This document shows positions 9,159 to 18,213 of a DNA stretch of 64,000 bases, one piece after another. The position numbers were made by a program, and so were the translations under genes. The first letter of the stretch is position 1; every line of letters starts with the position of its first letter. A model generated the notes under the pieces. That model worked only from the letters and a program-made list of their open reading frames with translations, did not search any database and was not told the origin of the DNA. The stretch is from Candidozyma auris (taxonomy: Eukaryota > Ascomycota > Pichiomycetes > Serinales > Metschnikowiaceae). The stretch spans positions 1,736,001-1,800,000 of the forward strand of contig NC_072812.1 of the NCBI RefSeq assembly GCF_003013715.1, written 5' to 3'.

Positions 9159-10148
9159 CTATTTGTTGCCTATGCTAAACTGTAGATGTTGTTCACGAAT
9201 GTGCATCTTGTCGGTGTCGCCGTTGTACAAGTCCCGTTCGTAGTAGTGCAACGTGCCTTCTTTCGAAAGGGCAATCACCGTTTGCGTTCTCGTACCGTAG
9301 TACTTACCAACAGCGTAGCCCATCTCTTTCAGCTTCAGCTCGTATGGCGTGACAAGAGGAGGAATGAAGATGGAGTTTTGAAGTTCCTTCATCTTCTGGT
9401 CAAAAGTGCCCTTTTTTCGAATTTCAGCGTCGTAAGTGTCAGAACTCAAAATCTCAAAGCAAGATTCAATGAGCTCTTCCTGGCTGTACCCTTCAGACAC
9501 AGACCTCCGAGCAAGACTACTTAGCTTCTTCCGCCCAAGCTCCACCTTCAGCCATGGCATATAGTATAGCGAGTTAGAAAGCCCAAAGGTCTCCTGTCGA
9601 TGGAAATGGTCGTGCATGTCGTCTAGCAGCACTTCTTGTGAATGCACCCTCCCTCGGTCGCCTCTATTGCTCATGAGATTGAGGGGCCTGAGCTTGTGCT
9701 TTCGGTCTAATTCAAGCGTACCATAGAGCAAGGTGAACCCGCCAATCTCACTCAATTTCGTTGGTTTGCCCGTGACACCACTTTTTTTATTCATTCTCTC
9801 TTCAAGTCCATCGTACCACTCAGAGTCCAGAAGGTCTGACACAAGGTACTCAAGCGGGAGAATGCCTCTTGACACTTTACCTGCTGCAGCGGTGTCTTCT
9901 CTGTAGTTGACCAAAACAGAGAGCCTGCCTTCCGAAGAAACACCTATCCATGTGCCATGTTCTGGTCTTGCGAGGTCTAGCGGTGACAATATTTGCGTGC
10001 CTTTGTTGGTGTCTCGGAGTGTCGCCAACTGAGTGGGCCTGGCAAAGTACTCGTCTCTGTTGGAAAGAAGAAGGAGTGGGAAATCTGGATGTGAGGTTGT
10101 TGTGAGTAGTATACATAAGCCACAGTTAAATATAAAGATTTTTAACAA
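9159..10148 (-). CDS. TANGO2 / NRDE family protein; start codon unresolved
   Basis: A homologue of TANGO2 (yeast YGR127W family), proteins tied to Golgi organisation, mitochondrial lipid and haem handling. The body matches well: CILLTTTSHPDFPLLLLSN followed by RDEYFARPT carries the NRDE signature, and PEHGTWIGVS and VLVNYRED follow. Family members begin Met-Cys-Ile. Here the codon before Cys-Ile (TGT at 10113-10115) is TTA, and no ATG occurs in frame until far downstream. Upstream the frame holds a TTG at 10146-10148, a TAG at 10152-10154 and then an ATG at 10221-10223. An ATG at 10114-10116 is out of frame by two bases. The given 5' limit is arbitrary; an intron, a 2-bp deletion or a sequence error are all possible. 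Confidence 0.7.
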   Translation of the reverse strand: MLKIFIFNCGLCILLTTTSHPDFPLLLLSNRDEYFARPTQLATLRDTNKGTQILSPLDLARPEHGTWIGVSSEGRLSVLVNYREDTAAAGKVSRGILPLEYLVSDLLDSEWYDGLEERMNKKSGVTGKPTKLSEIGGFTLLYGTLELDRKHKLRPLNLMSNRGDRGRVHSQEVLLDDMHDHFHRQETFGLSNSLYYMPWLKVELGRKKLSSLARRSVSEGYSQEELIESCFEILSSDTYDAEIRKKGTFDQKMKELQNSIFIPPLVTPYELKLKEMGYAVGKYYGTRTQTVIALSKEGTLHYYERDLYNGDTDKMHIREQHLQFSIGNK

Positions 10149-10527
10149 AATCTAGCTTATTGACAGTGGTCTAATCGGTACCAATGGACGCTTTATATCG
10201 TCCTGTTGGGTGTGTGCCTGCATGGCTCAACACCTAGTGTTCTGATCTTCTCGGCATCTACTACTTTTTCGGTCACGGTGTGGGGTAGTCAGATGATGGA
10301 ACCAAAATATTTTGGTGCCTTCAATGTTGGGCCCGATGGTATCTAAAGCAAGGGAAACATACGACTATCCGATAACAACATAGGATAGTCTTGCAAATAT
10401 ATCTCATTCATCCGTATAGAATTTTCGTAAAAAAAATAAAGTCAAACATTTATGTACGCCGAGACCCTCTGGCGCTCTCTACTTTATCATTTTGCAGCCG
10501 CCCGCGGCTGACTCCGACACCACTGAA
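10149..10527. other. Intergenic region between the TANGO2 gene and the IME2-like gene
   Basis: A spacer of 379 bp. It contains GTATGT on the minus strand at 10357-10362, a possible 5' splice site, but no TACTAAC branch point. Near the IME2-like stop it has the TTTTGCAGCC motif (10490-10499), overlapping an inverted repeat at 10495-10510. Confidence 0.5.
10495..10510. repeat. GC-rich inverted repeat CAGCCGC-CC-GCGGCTG
   Basis: Seven-base arms (10495-10501 and 10504-10510) with a 2-nt spacer sit 18 bp past the IME2-like stop codon. The left arm overlaps the recurring TTTTGCAGCC motif. It could form a hairpin in the IME2-like 3' UTR or be a palindromic binding site. Confidence 0.55.
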
Positions 10528-11997
10528 TCAACACGAGATTCGGTGGCAAAAGGACGTATCGGTGTCGAAACTCAATTCCTCAAATGGGCAAACCTGAAGC
10601 ATCTCCGATTCATTCTGAACATCTTCGTTGTCATGTTCAGGCTCAAAAACCCAGCTGTTAGTGGCATCAAAGGAGGTGTTTTTTGATCCAAATACCATGC
10701 TCAAATGCTGCTCATCCTCTGGCAAGTACGAATTTCTCAAACTCACCACATCGTAGCCCGTATTTTTCTGCTGTAAGATGTCACGAAGCATGTCCATCGA
10801 CCTGCTTGTGCCAACCGTCGAGTAGATGGTGTCAGGGCTGTCACCAGTGGTTTTGCAGGACTCGGTAGTAGACAGCAAAATGTGAAGCGGGTCCTCTTCT
10901 AAGATAGTGCCTTTGAAGTACGGATGGTGGCAGAGATCAAACACAGTGGGCCGTGAGTCAGGGTTCCACAAAAAGCAGGGACGAAGCGCAGAACACAAGA
11001 GGCTGTATTCTGGTTTAGGAATGAGCTCTTGCATGCTCAGGCCACGCGTCTGAGGCATGTAGAGACCAAGATTTTCTGCGAGCAGCCTACCTTCTTCCCA
11101 GTACCCACCAAAGGCTTCGCCATCGGGATCAACGTCGGTGGGGTGACCGAGACACTTGAGAACATGCCAGATCTGTTCTGCTTCGTTCGCTCCGGGAAAC
11201 AAGGGACGAGAGTTGACAATCTCCACGGCCACACATGCGAAGGCCCAGATGTCAATTGGCTGAGTGTAGTCACGCAGTCTCAACAAGATCTCGGGTGCCC
11301 GGTACCATCAGGTGGACACGTACGGGGTGAGGTCTTTCTTGTTGCTGAAGTGACGTGCAAGACCGTAGTCACACAACTTGACCATGTAGAAGTCTTTTTT
11401 CCTCTCGATCGGCACGTTGTCGGCGTCGCCATAGTACTGCACTGTCGGAGTGACCAAGATGTTCTCCGGCTTCACGTCCCTGTGGAAATAACCTTGGGAG
11501 TGGATATGACGAATGCCGTTCAAGAGCTGGGCGAGCATTGACTTCACCACATCTGGGGGCATGTGCTTGTTGCCATGTTTCTGGATGAGCAGGTAGAGAT
11601 TCTGGTTCATGGCTTCCATGACGATGCAAAGCTTCCCGCTCAAGCTGTCGATGAAAATGTGGTGGATCTGCAACAAGTTGATGTGAGAAGGCATGCTTTG
11701 AATGAAATTGACCTCAGTGATTTTGCGGTAGTCGGACTGCCGCTTGAGGTGGCTCTTCATCATTTTGATGGCGACCAACCCGTTGGTGCGGGGCCTAGTG
11801 TGTGGCAGCGACGCCGAGTGACACACGGGCTCCATCATGGTACCGACTTTTGACACGTCTGGGTCAAGCATCGTGGAAGATTTTTCTTTATACTTGGCCA
11901 AAAGGGCCTGACCGAACGACCCTATACCGAGACGGTGAATGACGAGAAAGTTGTTCAGGAGCATCAGATAACGCACATCGAACTCTTCTGAGCTCAT
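10528..11997 (-). pseudogene. IME2: IME2-like meiotic kinase interrupted by one in-frame TGA
   Basis: A CMGC kinase of the Ime2/MAK group, which drives meiosis in S. cerevisiae and developmental switches in other fungi. From the ATG at 11995-11997 the frame encodes 229 residues: glycine loop GIGSFG, VAIK lysine, HRDVKPEN catalytic loop, DYG in place of DFG, and the TPY activation site. It then stops at TGA (11308-11310). In the same frame the next codons read WYRAPEILL and continue 259 residues to a stop at 10528, with SRPLFPGANEAEQIWHVLK typical of Ime2. The TGA replaces the arginine of the invariant T-R-WYR motif. One base change from CGA or AGA explains it, and no other lesion is visible. 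The truncated protein would lack the kinase C-lobe. Confidence 0.85.
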
Positions 11998-13397
11998 GGT
12001 GGAAATTTGAAAGAGTATTAAAAATTTGTGAGGATCACCCAAGGAAGTAGATGAGGAAGAAGGGGTTGAGGGCGCTCCCTGAGTTGCTTTGTTATTTTAT
12101 AGGCAACGCCTGGTGCAACACCTCGATTTGGACCATTTTTTTTTGCAGCCATTCGCGCACAAGATCTACCTTAAACAGGTCCCTTCCAGCGCGAGACCGC
12201 TCAGAAAACAAGTAGATTGCGAATTATGGCAACTTTCGGCATATTTTTGGCAACCCATCAGAGATTTTGTATTTAAGTTCATATTATCCACTCTCCAAGT
12301 TCCCTGGCCTCTTCACCTGTGTTCCTTTCCAGGCTCTGGGGACTTCGCAAAAAGGGTCTCTGAGGGCAGGACTTGGGACGCTTGCCTTGCCCTGGCTGAG
12401 CCACATAGTACCCCTCGTTATTTGGTCCCTTGTGGATCAGCTTTGAATAGGCAAGAAAGAAAAGCAGCTCTCATCAGAATGCATTCTCCGAACTGTGAAC
12501 GTTTTAAATTATCGCTCTTGTCTCTGGTTCCTCGATCCTCTGCGACTGTCATCCCTTTTTGTCTTCCTTTTTTGTTTTCTTCTTTGAGGTAGCGACTGAG
12601 CTGAGGCTAGTGGGCCCGGCGCCACGCGAAGCCTGCGGGACTACAGCAGATGCCTGCCTGGGATCGGTAGGCTCGAGGAGCCTGCGCAGCCTACGCTCGA
12701 GGCGAATTGCGGCCCGCACAGATAAACTTCTTGCCCATCTGCGGCTAGGGAGGAGCCCAGGTGGTGGCACAGGTGGCACAGACGAAAAGGAAGAGGAAAA
12801 CAAAGCAGAACGCATTTTAGGGGGTTGTCTGTGACTTGGATTACTCGAATGTGATATTGGTGATGTTTGTTTTGCTGTGGACATCATGAGGATGTCTTGA
12901 CATTGGTGTTGACCGCTGGGCGTTTTCTGGCTTGTGGCTGAAATTTCTTATGCTTGGTCTGGCAAAGGAAGCTGCAGCAGATCTCGAGGCAGATGTGGCA
13001 GGGAGGGTCCTAGGCATTGGCCAAGCAAGGGTCATGTGAAACTGGGCCACTTAGGCAATGCATACTTAAAACAGAATCTGGGATGAAATCATAGTACATC
13101 GTTTTTGGAGATCTTGTGCTGGGTCAGTGGGTCGTCCAGGGACCGGTGTAACGGGTATTGGTATGGGTATCATCTGAAGAATGATATTATTAATGTCACT
13201 TGTTAACATGAAATCCACTATGGATGTTTGTGGATGCAATATTAGTACCAAGAGGTTCACCAAACATTCTTCTTTGTATTTTGGGGTAGAGTTTTCCTGG
13301 CCTTGTTGAGTCTCGTAGCTGGCTGCGAAAGCATTCTTGCTCGCGGTCTGCACTCATCACTCATACATACCAACCAGCTACTCCACATCCTCTTCCC
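11998..13397. other. Long intergenic region upstream of IME2-like and RQT4, with a GC-rich core
   Basis: A stretch of 1.4 kb between divergent genes. It has TTTTGCAGCC at 12141-12150, pyrimidine tracts near 12550-12590, then a GC-rich block (about 12595-12780) with nested inverted repeats. One pair is GTAGGCT (12667-12673) with AGCCTAC (12688-12694). A GCGGCTA (12741-12747) resembles half of a Ume6 URS1 site. A minus-strand frame (12549-12887, 112 codons) is rich in Ser, Pro and Arg with a lysine-rich tail and could be a small gene, but I recognise no family. A structured non-coding RNA is the alternative. Long promoters are usual for meiotic regulators. Confidence 0.4.
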
Positions 13398-14924
13398 ATG
13401 TACGAAAACCTCTACAAATATGCCACGGACGCCATTGCTGAAATTCTACCGATAGACAAGAATCTGTGCAAAGAGATGGTAAAGTATGCCCTCTCGCTAC
13501 CGTCTGACCATGAGCTAGAGTCTCATTTTCTCGATATTCTAGGGCCCAGCGACGCAACTTTCGACATTATCAGAAACTTCAAGCAGATCAAAGAAGAGGA
13601 GGACAAGAAGCGTCAAGATGAAGAACGACTCCGAAAAATGAGAGAAGAACGGGCAAAACCCTCTGCTGCTGCCGCCCTTGCTCCTTCCGGCAGCAAGGGG
13701 AAGAACGCATGGGGAGCTGGACAAGAGAAAAGGGGCAATTCAGGCGCCAGGCTCAATGCTAATAAGAACTCAGTCACCATATCTGAGCTTGCTGACGCAA
13801 AGCCCTCCGGCAAGGCTACCCAAGCTACTGCAAAGAAGCGGAAGAAAAAGAATCTCGACAATTTGAAGGACATTGAGGCTGCTCTCAATGATCTCGAGGT
13901 AGAAAGTGCCGCCAGCGGCCTAGATAATGCTATAAGCTCTCGTCGTGTTTGTAATTGCATGGCTACCAGGCATCCTCTCTTTGAAGTTGCTCCTAACTGC
14001 CTTAATTGTGGGAAGATTATCTGCTCAAAAGAAGGTTTGCAGCCGTGCTCATTCTGTGGAAAAGAGCTTCTTCTGTCGAACGAAAAGAAGGAGATAATTA
14101 CGATTTTGCGGTCAGAAAGGGATCAAAGTGACAACAAAAAGGAATTCCATCATATGGAGAGACCATCTCTGGCAACAGGAAAGGCCAAGAAGGGCATCAA
14201 GGTCTCAGTATCCGCAGGTGAGAACCTTTGGAAGGCGCAGGAGGCAGCCTTGGCCGAGGCAGACGCTGAGCGAAAGAGGGTGAGCGCCATGAAGGAAGAG
14301 GAGATTAAGAAGAAGAAGGAACTCGAGGAGCTGCTTAAAGAGATCGAACACTATGAAAAGACTAAAGACATCAACCCAGATCTCCTAGAGGCTCAGAACA
14401 GGCTAAACACATTGCTTAACTTTCAAGCTACTGGTGCCGAAAGAACCAGAATAATAGATAATGCTGCTGATTTTGAGATGCCCTCCGAATCCAGTGCAAG
14501 CATGTGGCTCTCCCCAGTGGAGAGAGCGTTGCAACTCAAAAAGCAGCAAAAGCTACACAGAAAAGCCGAGGAACAGAGAAAACAACGAATTGGCAGAACA
14601 AAGAAAGTGGTGGAAATGGTTATTAAGGACGGGAAAGTCAAGATGGTAGAGAAGCACATTGAGACCGAAGATACTGGGGAGGATGACAGGGAAATACAGG
14701 AGTTGCAAAACGATTTACACAATGAGAGGTTGGAGCAAGAATCCACCATGGCAAAGAATGTGTGGGATTACGAATGTGATGGAAAACGGTGGAACAGACC
14801 AGTGTATTTGGGAAATGAGAAATCGAATGGAGGGCAAGATGTCACGGATGCCCCCAAGCATTCGAAGGTTCAGCCTGTTGATAAGGTGGACAGTGATGAA
14901 CTTATAGTCGCCTTGCCTTCGTGA
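13398..14924 (+). CDS. RQT4: Ribosome quality-control trigger complex subunit Rqt4 (TRIP4/ASC-1 zinc finger)
   Basis: The yeast counterpart of TRIP4/ASC-1 (YKR023W). With Slh1 and Cue3 it forms the RQT complex, which splits collided ribosomes. In the 508-residue protein the ASC-1-type zinc finger spans about 182-225, with Cys in CNC, CLNC, ICSKEG and CSFC. The N-terminal 50 residues (YATDAIAEILPIDKNLC ... LDILGPS) are helical and resemble the homologues' N-terminal domain. Lys/Glu-rich coiled segments lie at 75-95 and 270-330. A conserved acidic/aromatic patch (KNVWDYECDGKRWNRPVY) is near the C-terminus. The gene converges with SLD2, with only 26 bp between stop codons. Confidence 0.85.
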   Translation: MYENLYKYATDAIAEILPIDKNLCKEMVKYALSLPSDHELESHFLDILGPSDATFDIIRNFKQIKEEEDKKRQDEERLRKMREERAKPSAAAALAPSGSKGKNAWGAGQEKRGNSGARLNANKNSVTISELADAKPSGKATQATAKKRKKKNLDNLKDIEAALNDLEVESAASGLDNAISSRRVCNCMATRHPLFEVAPNCLNCGKIICSKEGLQPCSFCGKELLLSNEKKEIITILRSERDQSDNKKEFHHMERPSLATGKAKKGIKVSVSAGENLWKAQEAALAEADAERKRVSAMKEEEIKKKKELEELLKEIEHYEKTKDINPDLLEAQNRLNTLLNFQATGAERTRIIDNAADFEMPSESSASMWLSPVERALQLKKQQKLHRKAEEQRKQRIGRTKKVVEMVIKDGKVKMVEKHIETEDTGEDDREIQELQNDLHNERLEQESTMAKNVWDYECDGKRWNRPVYLGNEKSNGGQDVTDAPKHSKVQPVDKVDSDELIVALPS

Positions 14925-14950
14925 TGTATATGTATATAAAAAGGATCATT

Positions 14951-16318
14951 TCACCGCCTTCTCATTCTCAGCTTGAACCTCTTTGAGCGAGGATCATTGA
15001 TCTTAAGTCTTTGAAAGTTGCCGCTGATGGGCTTGAATGTTCTACTTTTTTTCAGCAGCTCACCAGCGTGTAGTGATGGTTTGGTAGTGACGACTTCAGG
15101 CTCCAGGGTATCACAATCTGTTGAGTCATCATCCTCTGACTCCCCCTCATGGTGCCCCATCAACATCCTCATTTCCTTTTCTTTAATCTTTTTGATTTCA
15201 TCGTGAACATTCTTGCCTTCAAAAGACTCAACCTCGCCATCTTCTTCCCTCGGCTTAATCTTCCACCTCCTTGTCGTTCTCTTCTGTGTTATTCTCTTCC
15301 TTTTTTTGCCAAACGTAGATGCACCTATATTATCATCCTGCTTCTCCCCCTCTTCAGCAATTTCCTTTTGCATCTCTAGCATGAGCTCCAGTTCAACTTC
15401 TAATTTAAGCAGTTCATCGAGCTGAAGGCTGACAGCTTCGTTAAAGACATCAGTCAATTTTCTGTTGTTCCCCAACGATGACATTCTTTCAAGCTTTATT
15501 GGGGATGGTGATATCAGAAACTTCGAGTTTTCAAGCTCAAACTTGATTGGAGTTTGAGGTAGCATAGTTGTGTGTTTTGATTTGCTAGCTGAATTTGTCT
15601 GTAAGGGCAGCTCAGGCTCATCACGAAACAGAAATTTGTTGTTGACTTTGCCCAAGTAAAATGGCGTCTCTTCGTTAACTCGTTGAGTCTGAGTTACATG
15701 CAACGTTTGACCATGTTTTAGAGGAGACTGCGCCTGCTGTAGTGCCGCTGTAAGTGATTTCTTTGTCAGACTGTTAAACGCTGGAGTCAAGTCAGAATAC
15801 TCAATGCGTCTCACTGCTTTTGTAGGTGTCTTGAATATGGCCCCGTCCTTCAATGGAGATGAATTGAGGGTTTTAGGGACTTTGCTAGCAATGTTTTTCG
15901 AGGGAGATGACTCTGGTGGACTCAAGAAATCGAATAATGAGAGAACTTTGCCGTTTGCCTGAGGCGTCGGCCCCAACTCCGCGTTAGATCGAGGGTGGCT
16001 CTCATCTGCATTTTCCTTTGACTCCTCGTTTAATTCAACAGGTAGTGGAACAAAGTCTATTGCATCTAGATGATTCTCCAGTATTTTGTTCGTCACTCTG
16101 TCATCTCTTTGTTTTAAAGGCTCGCTTTGGGCTCTCTTCTGTTTTGATTTCAAGTGGTTGTAGCTCTTGTAAGCTTTATATATCTCTGGGTTGGCCTTGA
16201 CATCATCCTTTGAAGGATTTCTCCCATTGGCTTTTGCAAACGCCTTTTCCCATTCTTTTATATGTAGTTTTTGTCTTAGAAGGTCATTCTGTAAAGACAG
16301 GTCATTTTGTAAAGACAT
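14951..16318 (-). CDS. SLD2: DNA replication initiation regulator Sld2 (Drc1)
   Basis: Sld2 is phosphorylated by S-phase CDK, binds Dpb11 and helps load GINS and DNA polymerase epsilon. The N-terminal block shared with RecQL4 is clear: LLRQKLHIKEWEKAFAKANG, then NPSKDDVKANPEIYKAYKSY (about 13-53). Several S/T-P sites, many followed by basic residues (FKTPTKAVRR, SPSPIKLER, LPQTPIKFE), are candidate CDK sites. The end KKSRTFKPISGNFQRLKIND is a conserved Sld2 patch. Length is 455. The first 36 coding bases are a tandem 18-bp duplication (MSLQND then CTG-SLQND). Three ACGCG sites lie in the 98-bp upstream gap. Confidence 0.9.
   Translation of the reverse strand: MSLQNDLSLQNDLLRQKLHIKEWEKAFAKANGRNPSKDDVKANPEIYKAYKSYNHLKSKQKRAQSEPLKQRDDRVTNKILENHLDAIDFVPLPVELNEESKENADESHPRSNAELGPTPQANGKVLSLFDFLSPPESSPSKNIASKVPKTLNSSPLKDGAIFKTPTKAVRRIEYSDLTPAFNSLTKKSLTAALQQAQSPLKHGQTLHVTQTQRVNEETPFYLGKVNNKFLFRDEPELPLQTNSASKSKHTTMLPQTPIKFELENSKFLISPSPIKLERMSSLGNNRKLTDVFNEAVSLQLDELLKLEVELELMLEMQKEIAEEGEKQDDNIGASTFGKKRKRITQKRTTRRWKIKPREEDGEVESFEGKNVHDEIKKIKEKEMRMLMGHHEGESEDDDSTDCDTLEPEVVTTKPSLHAGELLKKSRTFKPISGNFQRLKINDPRSKRFKLRMRRR
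16283..16318 (-). repeat. 18-bp tandem duplication at the SLD2 start codon
   Basis: On the coding strand the unit ATG TCT TTA CAA AAT GAC (16301-16318) is followed at once by CTG TCT TTA CAG AAT GAC (16283-16300). They differ at two bases, one of which turns ATG into CTG. It adds six residues before the conserved Sld2 N-terminus. Confidence 0.9.
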
Positions 16319-16333
16319 GCTAATTATGTTTTA

Positions 16334-16381
16334 ACGCGACGGCCTGATACGCGCTGTGAGAACTGGTGCTGCCTACACGCG
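16334..16381. promoter_or_regulatory. Three ACGCG (MCB-type) cores before SLD2
   Basis: ACGCG occurs at 16334-16338, 16349-16353 and 16377-16381, within 65 bp of the SLD2 ATG and in the only 98 bp available for its promoter. ACGCG is the core of the MluI cell-cycle box bound by MBF (Mbp1-Swi6) in G1/S, which suits a replication factor. Confidence 0.65.
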
Positions 16382-16416
16382 ATGGTTGCAAAATAGCGTA
16401 TGTACATGATTGATCC

Positions 16417-18213
16417 TCAGAGCTCTGCTATATATGTCTGAATACCTTCGAATTTGTTCTTGCCTAAACTCTCTAACATTGAACTGGCAGCTCTTTTAAA
16501 AGCATCCTTCTCGTTATCAGACTGAAATTTCTCCTTGTTTGCACGAAGCGATTGCATAACAGTTCCTCCTACTTCTGAGCCGTTATCCCAGTAGCGATTG
16601 AAGAAAAATAGGATCTGAGCACGATTATTGACGAGACTTAGGAAAACCATTAGTCTTAGCCATGACTGAAGGACGACTTCGTCCGATGGTGATACTCTTG
16701 AAAAACAAATCTTATTCCACTCTTCCCAAAAGATTTCCCATTTACCGGCATTGCCATAAGTGAATAGAATGAGTTCTTGGACAGGTGCGGTAAGCTCATG
16801 CCCAGCCTCAATCTTCTCCGTGAGATAATTCACGAGGCTTAAAACGTCTCTAGCTCTTTTGGACGCAATGCTAATCGAGGGACCTGGTTCTCTAATAATC
16901 ATTTCGTCTCCATGGTGAATGATGCCGTCCACCATCTTGGGAGTCACGGGTTCTTTGTTCTCGTCGTATGCTAGTCTCCAAAGAAGGGGAATGAAATCGG
17001 GGTTGGTGATCATGGAGAAGCGTTCGTTTGAAAAGCTGTAAAGAGTACGAATAAAAGTAGAGAGCTTTTGAAATCTGAGGTCAGCGTGATGCTTCTCGAA
17101 ACTCGCTTCGTTGACATCTGGAGAATCGAGTAGGAGCTTCATGTATTCGGACACATCCTTGGCTTTCTCCGATGCATAATCAAGGGAATCATCAAGAGCC
17201 AAGTCAATAGAAGCGTACTTGCTAAGTAACACTTCCTCGCATTTCTCGAATGTGACGATGGCCGGACGTATCAAATGAAGCGTTTTGTACATTTGAAACC
17301 TCAAACTATAATCACGAAAATTGGGATTCTCACATGCTTTGTTGAATGCAACAAGACGTTGCTCTAGTTCAGCATCCGTACTGTCCGGACTAAGGGAGTG
17401 CAATTGGTATAAATGCGTTTCCAAAGTCTCCAGACTCGAGTACAAAGTTTTTGCAGAAGTATGCAATCGCCTTATTCCACTGAAGATGTGATCTGATAAT
17501 TGAGGAGCGCTTTCCTTAGGTGCATACTTCTCAGCATCTTCAGGCTTGCACCAAAGGGACTCGAGGTTCAATTCTTCTCTTCTCTCTTTCGTCATCATAT
17601 GGATGTCAATATTTTCATGATGGCACATTATCCACGAGTTTGCAGATTTGCCATAGTCGTTTGCTGTTGCAGGGGGCCCTCTGGATGCCCTTCTGAGGAG
17701 CCTCCTCCGCATTATAGGTGACATGGCTCCACTGACCATTCCTTCCATTAGAGGGAAGTAATCATATGTGTGCTTAAGGTAGTGGCGAAATTCAGTCGCA
17801 GCCTTAAAGTTATGCTTCTCAGATTTACCTGAGCAGATCAAAATGTAGTCAACGCTTTTGTTTGTCGCCCTGAATTCGTGGCTGTCATCAAGTGTGGTCA
17901 TGTCAAAGAGATGAATGTCCGTCATACCATACTTATTGGCCAAAAGATCACAGAACGTGGAAACTTCTTGAGGAGCATTCGTTGGAATTTCAGGGAGCTC
18001 AACTTTCTGTGTCTCCAGCAACGGCGAAGCCACATCTTCCCTCAAGTACCAAGGCACATTGATATCCTCTGTTGAATTCTCAGCTTTTTCATCAGTAGGC
18101 CGTTTCTCGACGAGTTTGTCTGATAGTCGTCTTGATAGTAGAAGAGTCGACGGAAGAGGCGTCTTGGCAACATGGCGGACAATTCCTTTTACATGAGTAT
18201 TGAGCTTCAACAT
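16417..18213 (-). CDS. ATP25: Mitochondrial Atp25 (RsfS-like domain plus OLI1 mRNA stabiliser)
   Basis: Atp25 is made as one precursor and cleaved in mitochondria. The N-terminal half resembles the ribosome silencing factor RsfS; the C-terminal half stabilises the OLI1 (Atp9) mRNA and supports the ATP synthase c-ring. The 598 residues match the usual length of about 610. A basic presequence (LNTHVKGIVRHVAKT) leads. The RsfS-like domain is at about 85-220 (FCDLLANKYGMTDIHLFDMT, KSVDYILICSG, WIMCHHENIDIHMM). The remainder is helical (RLHTSAKTLYSSLETLETHL) and matches the M-domain. ATG at 16417 side checked: the start codon is at 18211-18213. Confidence 0.88.
   Translation of the reverse strand: MLKLNTHVKGIVRHVAKTPLPSTLLLSRRLSDKLVEKRPTDEKAENSTEDINVPWYLREDVASPLLETQKVELPEIPTNAPQEVSTFCDLLANKYGMTDIHLFDMTTLDDSHEFRATNKSVDYILICSGKSEKHNFKAATEFRHYLKHTYDYFPLMEGMVSGAMSPIMRRRLLRRASRGPPATANDYGKSANSWIMCHHENIDIHMMTKERREELNLESLWCKPEDAEKYAPKESAPQLSDHIFSGIRRLHTSAKTLYSSLETLETHLYQLHSLSPDSTDAELEQRLVAFNKACENPNFRDYSLRFQMYKTLHLIRPAIVTFEKCEEVLLSKYASIDLALDDSLDYASEKAKDVSEYMKLLLDSPDVNEASFEKHHADLRFQKLSTFIRTLYSFSNERFSMITNPDFIPLLWRLAYDENKEPVTPKMVDGIIHHGDEMIIREPGPSISIASKRARDVLSLVNYLTEKIEAGHELTAPVQELILFTYGNAGKWEIFWEEWNKICFSRVSPSDEVVLQSWLRLMVFLSLVNNRAQILFFFNRYWDNGSEVGGTVMQSLRANKEKFQSDNEKDAFKRAASSMLESLGKNKFEGIQTYIAEL

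What the first reader, a model, noticed from the sequence alone, without database searches (positions are those of the whole stretch)
11308..11310. Single in-frame TGA in the activation loop of an otherwise intact IME2-like kinase
The frame reads ...TPYVST, TGA, then WYRAPEILL, and continues 259 codons with full Ime2 C-lobe features. CMGC kinases have an arginine exactly here (T-R-WYR), and CGA or AGA becomes TGA by one base change. No other stop or frameshift is visible, so the event is recent, strain-specific, a sequence error, or the stop is read through. If real, this lineage lacks a full Ime2, which bears on whether it can complete meiosis or on Ime2's other roles in filamentation.
Basis: partly seen in the sequence, partly recalled or inferred. 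Interest (0 to 1): 0.85.

Follow-up and report, generated by a model that had tools for sequence, protein, structure and literature searches.

The report
Broken meiosis kinase in Candida auris
The reference genome of a Candida auris strain from Japan carries a stop signal in the middle of IME2, a kinase gene that yeasts use for meiosis, so this strain probably cannot make the working enzyme; this bears on whether this hospital yeast can still have sex.

Summary
The minus-strand gene at 10528-11997 is a 489-codon IME2-type kinase interrupted once, by TGA at codon 230 (11308-11310), between the T-P-Y activation loop and WYRAPE. The site is arginine in 120 of 120 aligned relatives. Two published marker primers lie at exactly the coordinates given for Candida auris B11220 (clade II, Japan), so the window is from that assembly. 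No second IME2 was found; of 67 places matching an IME2 query, only this one has an internal stop. Sequence beyond the stop has not decayed, so the loss looks recent. Readthrough lacks support: the TGA is not conserved, no stable RNA fold follows, and no UCA-anticodon tRNA turned up. Assembly error is unlikely (published Illumina polishing) but not excluded without reads. Unexpectedly, the only two other conspecific records found carry different lesions: one base fewer in an A-run (P0001), and HRD changed to HMD (P0020, full length). They represent clusters whose other members I could not see, so allele frequencies are unknown. Most likely this is an ordinary nonsense allele in an informative gene and species; repeated decay of IME2 across C. 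auris lineages, beside the known STE6 lesion of clade I, is the bolder reading.

The parts
10528..11997 (-). IME2-type kinase gene, 489 codons plus terminal TGA, interrupted at codon 230
   Evidence: a named Candida maltosa IME2 finds this locus first in the genome at 49% identity, next best 35%
11308..11310 (-). In-frame TGA at codon 230, between the activation loop T-P-Y-V-S-T and W-Y-R-A-P-E
   Evidence: arginine in 120 of 120 relatives
11311..11997 (-). Codons 1-229: N-lobe, catalytic loop HRD (R173), DYG (D210) and activation loop; what would be translated without readthrough
10531..11307 (-). Codons 231-489: WYRAPE, the rest of the C-lobe and a C-terminal tail; open frame cut off by the TGA
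11395..11400 (-). Run of six A (coding strand) at codons 200-201; the conspecific record P0001 has one A fewer and is frameshifted from here
11479..11481 (-). Codon 173, arginine of HRD, intact in the window; methionine in the conspecific record P0020
11923..11925 (-). Codon 25 in the glycine-rich loop: Ile in the window, Leu in both other conspecific records

Best explanation
The TGA is a real, recent nonsense substitution that inactivates IME2 in this haploid Candida auris clade II isolate. Shown: the stop, its place in the kinase domain, its absence from 120 relatives, and the lack of a second IME2 in the assembly. Inferred: without readthrough, translation ends at codon 229 and gives a kinase without the P+1 loop, the APE motif and C-lobe helices F to I, which should be inactive and may be unstable, with the mRNA a candidate for nonsense-mediated decay. 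The gene became dispensable because the lineage reproduces clonally, so the substitution could drift to fixation. [quoted passage not shown] 2014), its loss may impair both in this lineage.
For: One TGA replaces one profile position with both halves otherwise conserved. Identity to five Candidozyma relatives is 77.7-80.8% before the stop and 73.3-79.3% over codons 231-365 after it, and only codon 425 differs from P0020 after the stop, so the 3' half has not decayed. No long-term acceleration: P0020 is 50.4% identical to the outgroup P0026 against 50.5-52.0% for five relatives. A full-length conspecific record with R at 230 exists (P0020, 485 of 489 residues equal). 66 of 66 other places matching an IME2 query have no internal stop. 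Published assembly: B11220 was nanopore plus four or five rounds of Illumina Pilon correction (passage in PMC8128392). Under no constraint, a nonsense change somewhere in the species tree has a chance of about 0.21-0.27 for a gene of this make-up, so it needs no special cause once the gene is dispensable.
Against: No reads were available, so an error at this base is not excluded. Nothing here tests expression, readthrough in the cell or mating. Other sex and meiosis genes looked at (SPO11-like, STE12, three NDT80/PhoG, two Rad21/Rec8, STE2, STE3) have no stop inside the matched stretch, so general decay of the pathway is not seen; these searches would not show frameshifts outside the match. 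PMC9218166 (passages) reports limited signatures of recombination within clades, against full clonality.
Confidence: 0.82

Rival explanations
1. The TGA is a base error of the B11220 assembly and IME2 is intact in the isolate.
For: The assembly rests on nanopore reads (passage in PMC8128392); both other conspecific records differ from the window at codon 25 too; no reads could be inspected.
Against: Four or five rounds of Illumina correction are reported; leftover nanopore errors are mostly indels (recalled), not substitutions; no other interrupted ORF pair of this kind was found in the 64 kb window and 66 of 66 other places matching an IME2 query are uninterrupted.
Confidence: 0.12
2. The stop is read through, by chance or by programme, and some full-length Ime2 is made.
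For: TGA is in general the leakiest stop in yeast, and arginine is one of the residues reported at read-through UGA (both recalled).
Against: Not conserved: R in 120 of 120 relatives. The next bases are TGGTAC, not the recalled CTA-type or CARYYA readthrough contexts (one search shows the context). The downstream 100 bases fold no better than shuffles (z 0.90, 161 of 200 shuffles at least as good). A pattern for tRNAs with a UCA anticodon gave 16 places against 27 for its control, and ARAGORN found no tRNA at any of the 16 (no positive control was run and ARAGORN used the bacterial code).
Confidence: 0.04
3. An intron removes the TGA.
For: A GTACGT donor-like site lies 13 bases before the TGA.
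Against: No in-frame donor-acceptor pair of 40-300 bases that spans the TGA was found within coding bases 601-900, and 120 of 120 relatives have the residues around the site (T229, R230, W231, Y232, R233) in their protein, so splicing them out would cost the activation segment.
Confidence: 0.01

Closest known systems
IME2/SME1 meiosis-induction kinase (RCK-type CMGC kinase) of Saccharomycotina
   Same: Both kinase halves, VAIK lysine, HRD, DYG, T-X-Y activation loop, WYRxPE; reciprocal best match of a named IME2
   Different: Frame cut by a TGA at codon 230, so no complete kinase is encoded without readthrough
STE6 frameshift of C. auris clade I (loss of the a-factor exporter)
   Same: A fixed loss-of-function lesion in a sex gene of one C. 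auris lineage (passages in PMC7746259, and PMC9218166)
   Different: Other gene, other clade and mating type (here clade II, MTL-alpha), a nonsense substitution and not a deletion
Stop codons in kinase genes opened by A-to-I mRNA editing in filamentous fungi (PUK1 of Fusarium; recalled)
   Same: A sexual-stage kinase with a stop inside its kinase domain
   Different: Editing of TGA would give Trp, not the conserved Arg; the stop is not conserved; such editing is not known in budding yeasts (recalled)

Membership tests
IME2 kinase orthologue | Protein kinase domain over its whole length | tested here: met
   Pkinase 22-160 and 162-263 of 263 in the two halves; met only across the stop
IME2 kinase orthologue | Best match of a named IME2 in this genome | tested here: met
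   P0113 (Candida maltosa IME2/SME1): this locus E 1e-94, 49%; next 7.6e-23, 35%
IME2 kinase orthologue | Catalytic residues and T-X-Y activation motif | tested here: met
   K78, R173, D174, N179, D210, T224, Y226 present in the window
IME2 kinase orthologue | One uninterrupted frame encoding an active kinase | tested here: not met
   TGA at codon 230; filed as a broken IME2 allele, not as a working member
IME2 kinase orthologue | Role in meiosis or mating | not testable with these tools
   needs genetics
Programmed stop-codon readthrough | Stop codon conserved in relatives | tested here: not met
   R in 120 of 120 relatives
Programmed readthrough | Favourable downstream context or structure | tested here: not met
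   TGA TGG TAC; fold z 0.90; the consensus contexts are recalled
Recoded TGA or suppressor tRNA | tRNA with anticodon UCA | tested here: inconclusive
   16 pattern places, control 27, ARAGORN 0 of 16; no positive control
Recoded TGA | TGA not used as a terminator | tested here: not met
   TGA ends 10 of 35 ORFs
Recent nonsense allele (young pseudogene) | Conspecific record without the stop, no decay after the stop | tested here: met
   P0020 has R230; identity after the stop kept
Recent nonsense allele (young pseudogene) | Present in raw reads and other clade II isolates | not testable with these tools
   no reads or other C. auris genomes at hand

The most novel reading that the evidence does not exclude
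IME2 is being lost in parallel across Candida auris: a nonsense codon in the clade II reference, a one-base frameshift in another lineage (P0001) and a catalytic-loop HRD to HMD change in a third (P0020), so that, with STE6 broken in clade I, several lineages have each closed a different door to sex after the clades parted.
Probability: 0.35. Interest if true: 0.65.

Novelty: new member of a known kind. Interest (0 to 1): 0.45.

Why it matters
Whether C. auris can mate and undergo meiosis is an open question with clinical weight: opposite mating types now meet in the same hospitals. [quoted passage not shown] A broken IME2 in the clade II reference, and other lesions in conspecific records, would mean that presence lists overstate the sexual capacity of some lineages, and gives three defined sites to score in public genomes. 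It is also a caution for anyone who uses B11220 as a mating partner or as the reference for this gene.

Tried and rejected
Intron across the TGA: no in-frame donor-acceptor pair. Readthrough structure: fold z 0.90. Rfam scan of the window: no match. Suppressor tRNA: nothing found, with the limits told above. Using P0001 to see whether its lineage also has the TGA: not possible, because in its shifted frame two of six arginine codons give the same peptide as TGA. C-lobe search for separate C-terminal fragments in databases: 19 proteins, none conspecific; N-lobe search: 18 proteins, one conspecific, P0001. These searches have length limits and show cluster representatives only, so absence means little. 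Two C. auris papers on meiosis-gene conservation and on clade II genomes were looked at in passages and do not mention IME2 in the main text (PMC6297351, 'ime' 0 occurrences) or premature stops (PMC12843039); supplements could not be read. Literature searches for IME2 with C. auris listed three papers each, five different ones in all; only PMC12359140 was opened, in passages. Searches gave no report of this lesion in their listings; this covers only the held open-access library and only the papers that I opened in passages. Sherwood et al. 2014 (PMC4051440) is not held; its result is taken from a passage of PMC12359140.

No structure prediction was run.

Full report
What is there. The minus strand of 10528-11997 holds a 489-codon gene with a single in-frame TGA at codon 230 (11308-11310) and a terminal TGA. 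The two halves match the Pfam protein kinase profile at positions 22-160 and 162-263 of 263: the stop stands in the place of one residue. In the 120 proteins listed in the homology search (of 2631 with E up to 0.001) that residue is arginine in 120 of 120, and the flanking T229, W231, Y232, R233, P235 and E236 are equally invariant. The window keeps the catalytic lysine, HRD, DYG and the activation-loop T-P-Y. A named Candida maltosa IME2/SME1 (P0113) finds this locus first in the genome (49% identity, one TGA inside) and the next place at 35%, so it is the IME2 orthologue and no second copy was seen.

Where it is from. The genome has 12,249,773 bases in 7 contigs. The ClaID universal primer for C. 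auris lies at C6:525555, and the clade II-specific CSS-2 primer at C4:14050. PMC9045239 (passages) gives these very coordinates for CP043536.1 and CP043534.1, the sixth and fourth of the B11220 accessions CP043531-CP043537 listed in PMC8128392 (passages). A MAT-alpha box is present, as reported for clades II and III (passages in PMC9045239 and PMC9218166). The window is therefore C. auris B11220, clade II, Japan. That B11220 derives from the type strain is recalled, not tested.

Is it more than chance or error? In the window only this gene, and its antisense shadow, is a pair of long same-frame ORFs split by one stop. Of 67 places in the genome that match P0113, this one alone has an internal stop; in an earlier search with the N-lobe all 46 matches were free of stops inside the match, this one because the query ends before the TGA. 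The 67 are matches, not 67 different genes. The assembly was corrected with Illumina reads in four or five rounds (passage in PMC8128392). I could not see reads. If the gene were free of constraint, the published number of SNPs (63,674 among 87 isolates) implies about 7.6 changes per such gene and a chance of 0.21-0.27 for a nonsense change somewhere in the species. So one stop is not remarkable once the gene is dispensable, but it is unexpected if the gene is needed.

How old. After the stop, codons 231-365 are 73.3-79.3% identical to five Candidozyma relatives, against 77.7-80.8% before it. The conspecific full-length record P0020 differs from the window at four residues, 25, 173, 230 and 425. 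The C. auris protein is no more distant from an outgroup than its relatives are (50.4% against 50.5-52.0%). The loss is recent.

Other alleles. Three protein searches gave two further conspecific records, both from the source labelled lgn alone. P0020 (489 residues, cluster of 39 sequences) has arginine at 230 but methionine in place of the HRD arginine (residue 173), which is R in the other 119 of the 120 relatives. P0001 (238 residues, cluster of 4) equals the window, apart from residue 25, if one A is missing from the run of six at codons 200-201, and ends soon after in the wrong frame. So three of three conspecific sequences that I could see carry three different changes expected to disable the kinase. 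The HMD effect is inferred from the known role of the HRD arginine (recalled); kinase activity was not tested. The caveat is heavy: these are cluster representatives, their other members and strains are hidden, rare variants or assembly errors may stand for a cluster, and an ordinary intact allele may be common among the 39.

Other sex genes. SPO11-like, STE12, three NDT80/PhoG, two Rad21/Rec8, STE2 and STE3 genes, nine places in six families, have no stop inside the matched stretch. This does not exclude lesions elsewhere in them; the Rad21/Rec8 matches are only 26-29 residues long.

How it works, or fails. Most likely nothing is read past codon 229: the fragment would hold the N-lobe and catalytic loop, but not the P+1 loop, APE and the C-lobe helices that a kinase needs (established kinase anatomy). 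Readthrough is disfavoured by lack of conservation, by context, by the lack of a stable downstream fold and by the lack of a UCA tRNA candidate. TGA is in normal use as a terminator, ending 10 of 35 ORFs. In Clavispora lusitaniae IME2 is reported to matter for both mating and meiosis (passage in PMC12359140, citing Sherwood et al. 2014, which I did not see). If the wiring is shared, this lineage would be impaired in both.

Against what is known. STE6 is broken in clade I (passages), and PMC6297351 lists meiosis genes missing from C. auris but does not mention IME2 in its main text. I found no report of an IME2 lesion in C. auris in the searches, of which I opened only the papers named here, in passages. 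PMC9218166 reports limited recombination signals within clades, which speaks against strict clonality and is not explained by my reading. Verdict: a real observation, a new instance of a known kind (loss-of-function allele of a sex gene), with a bolder reading of parallel loss that public genomes can test at once.

Noticed in passing
G000:C6:379715 and C6:525555 (outside the window): The C. auris universal primer site occurs twice, 145.8 kb apart, on one contig. This may reflect the segmental duplication with two centromere copies described for this assembly (passage in PMC8262905).
   Followed up: partly
P0020 residue 173 (window codon at 11479-11481): A full-length conspecific IME2 record has HMD in place of HRD in the catalytic loop.
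   Followed up: partly
P0001 (window A-run 11395-11400): A conspecific IME2 record has one A fewer and a frameshift at codons 200-201.
   Followed up: partly
11923-11925: Isoleucine in the glycine-rich loop of the window's IME2, where the other two conspecific records have leucine.
   Followed up: no
9159-10151 and 13290-18213: Neighbours of IME2: a TANGO2-domain gene, a C2HC5 zinc-finger gene, a Drc1/Sld2 gene and an RsfS-domain gene, each in an open frame.
   Followed up: no
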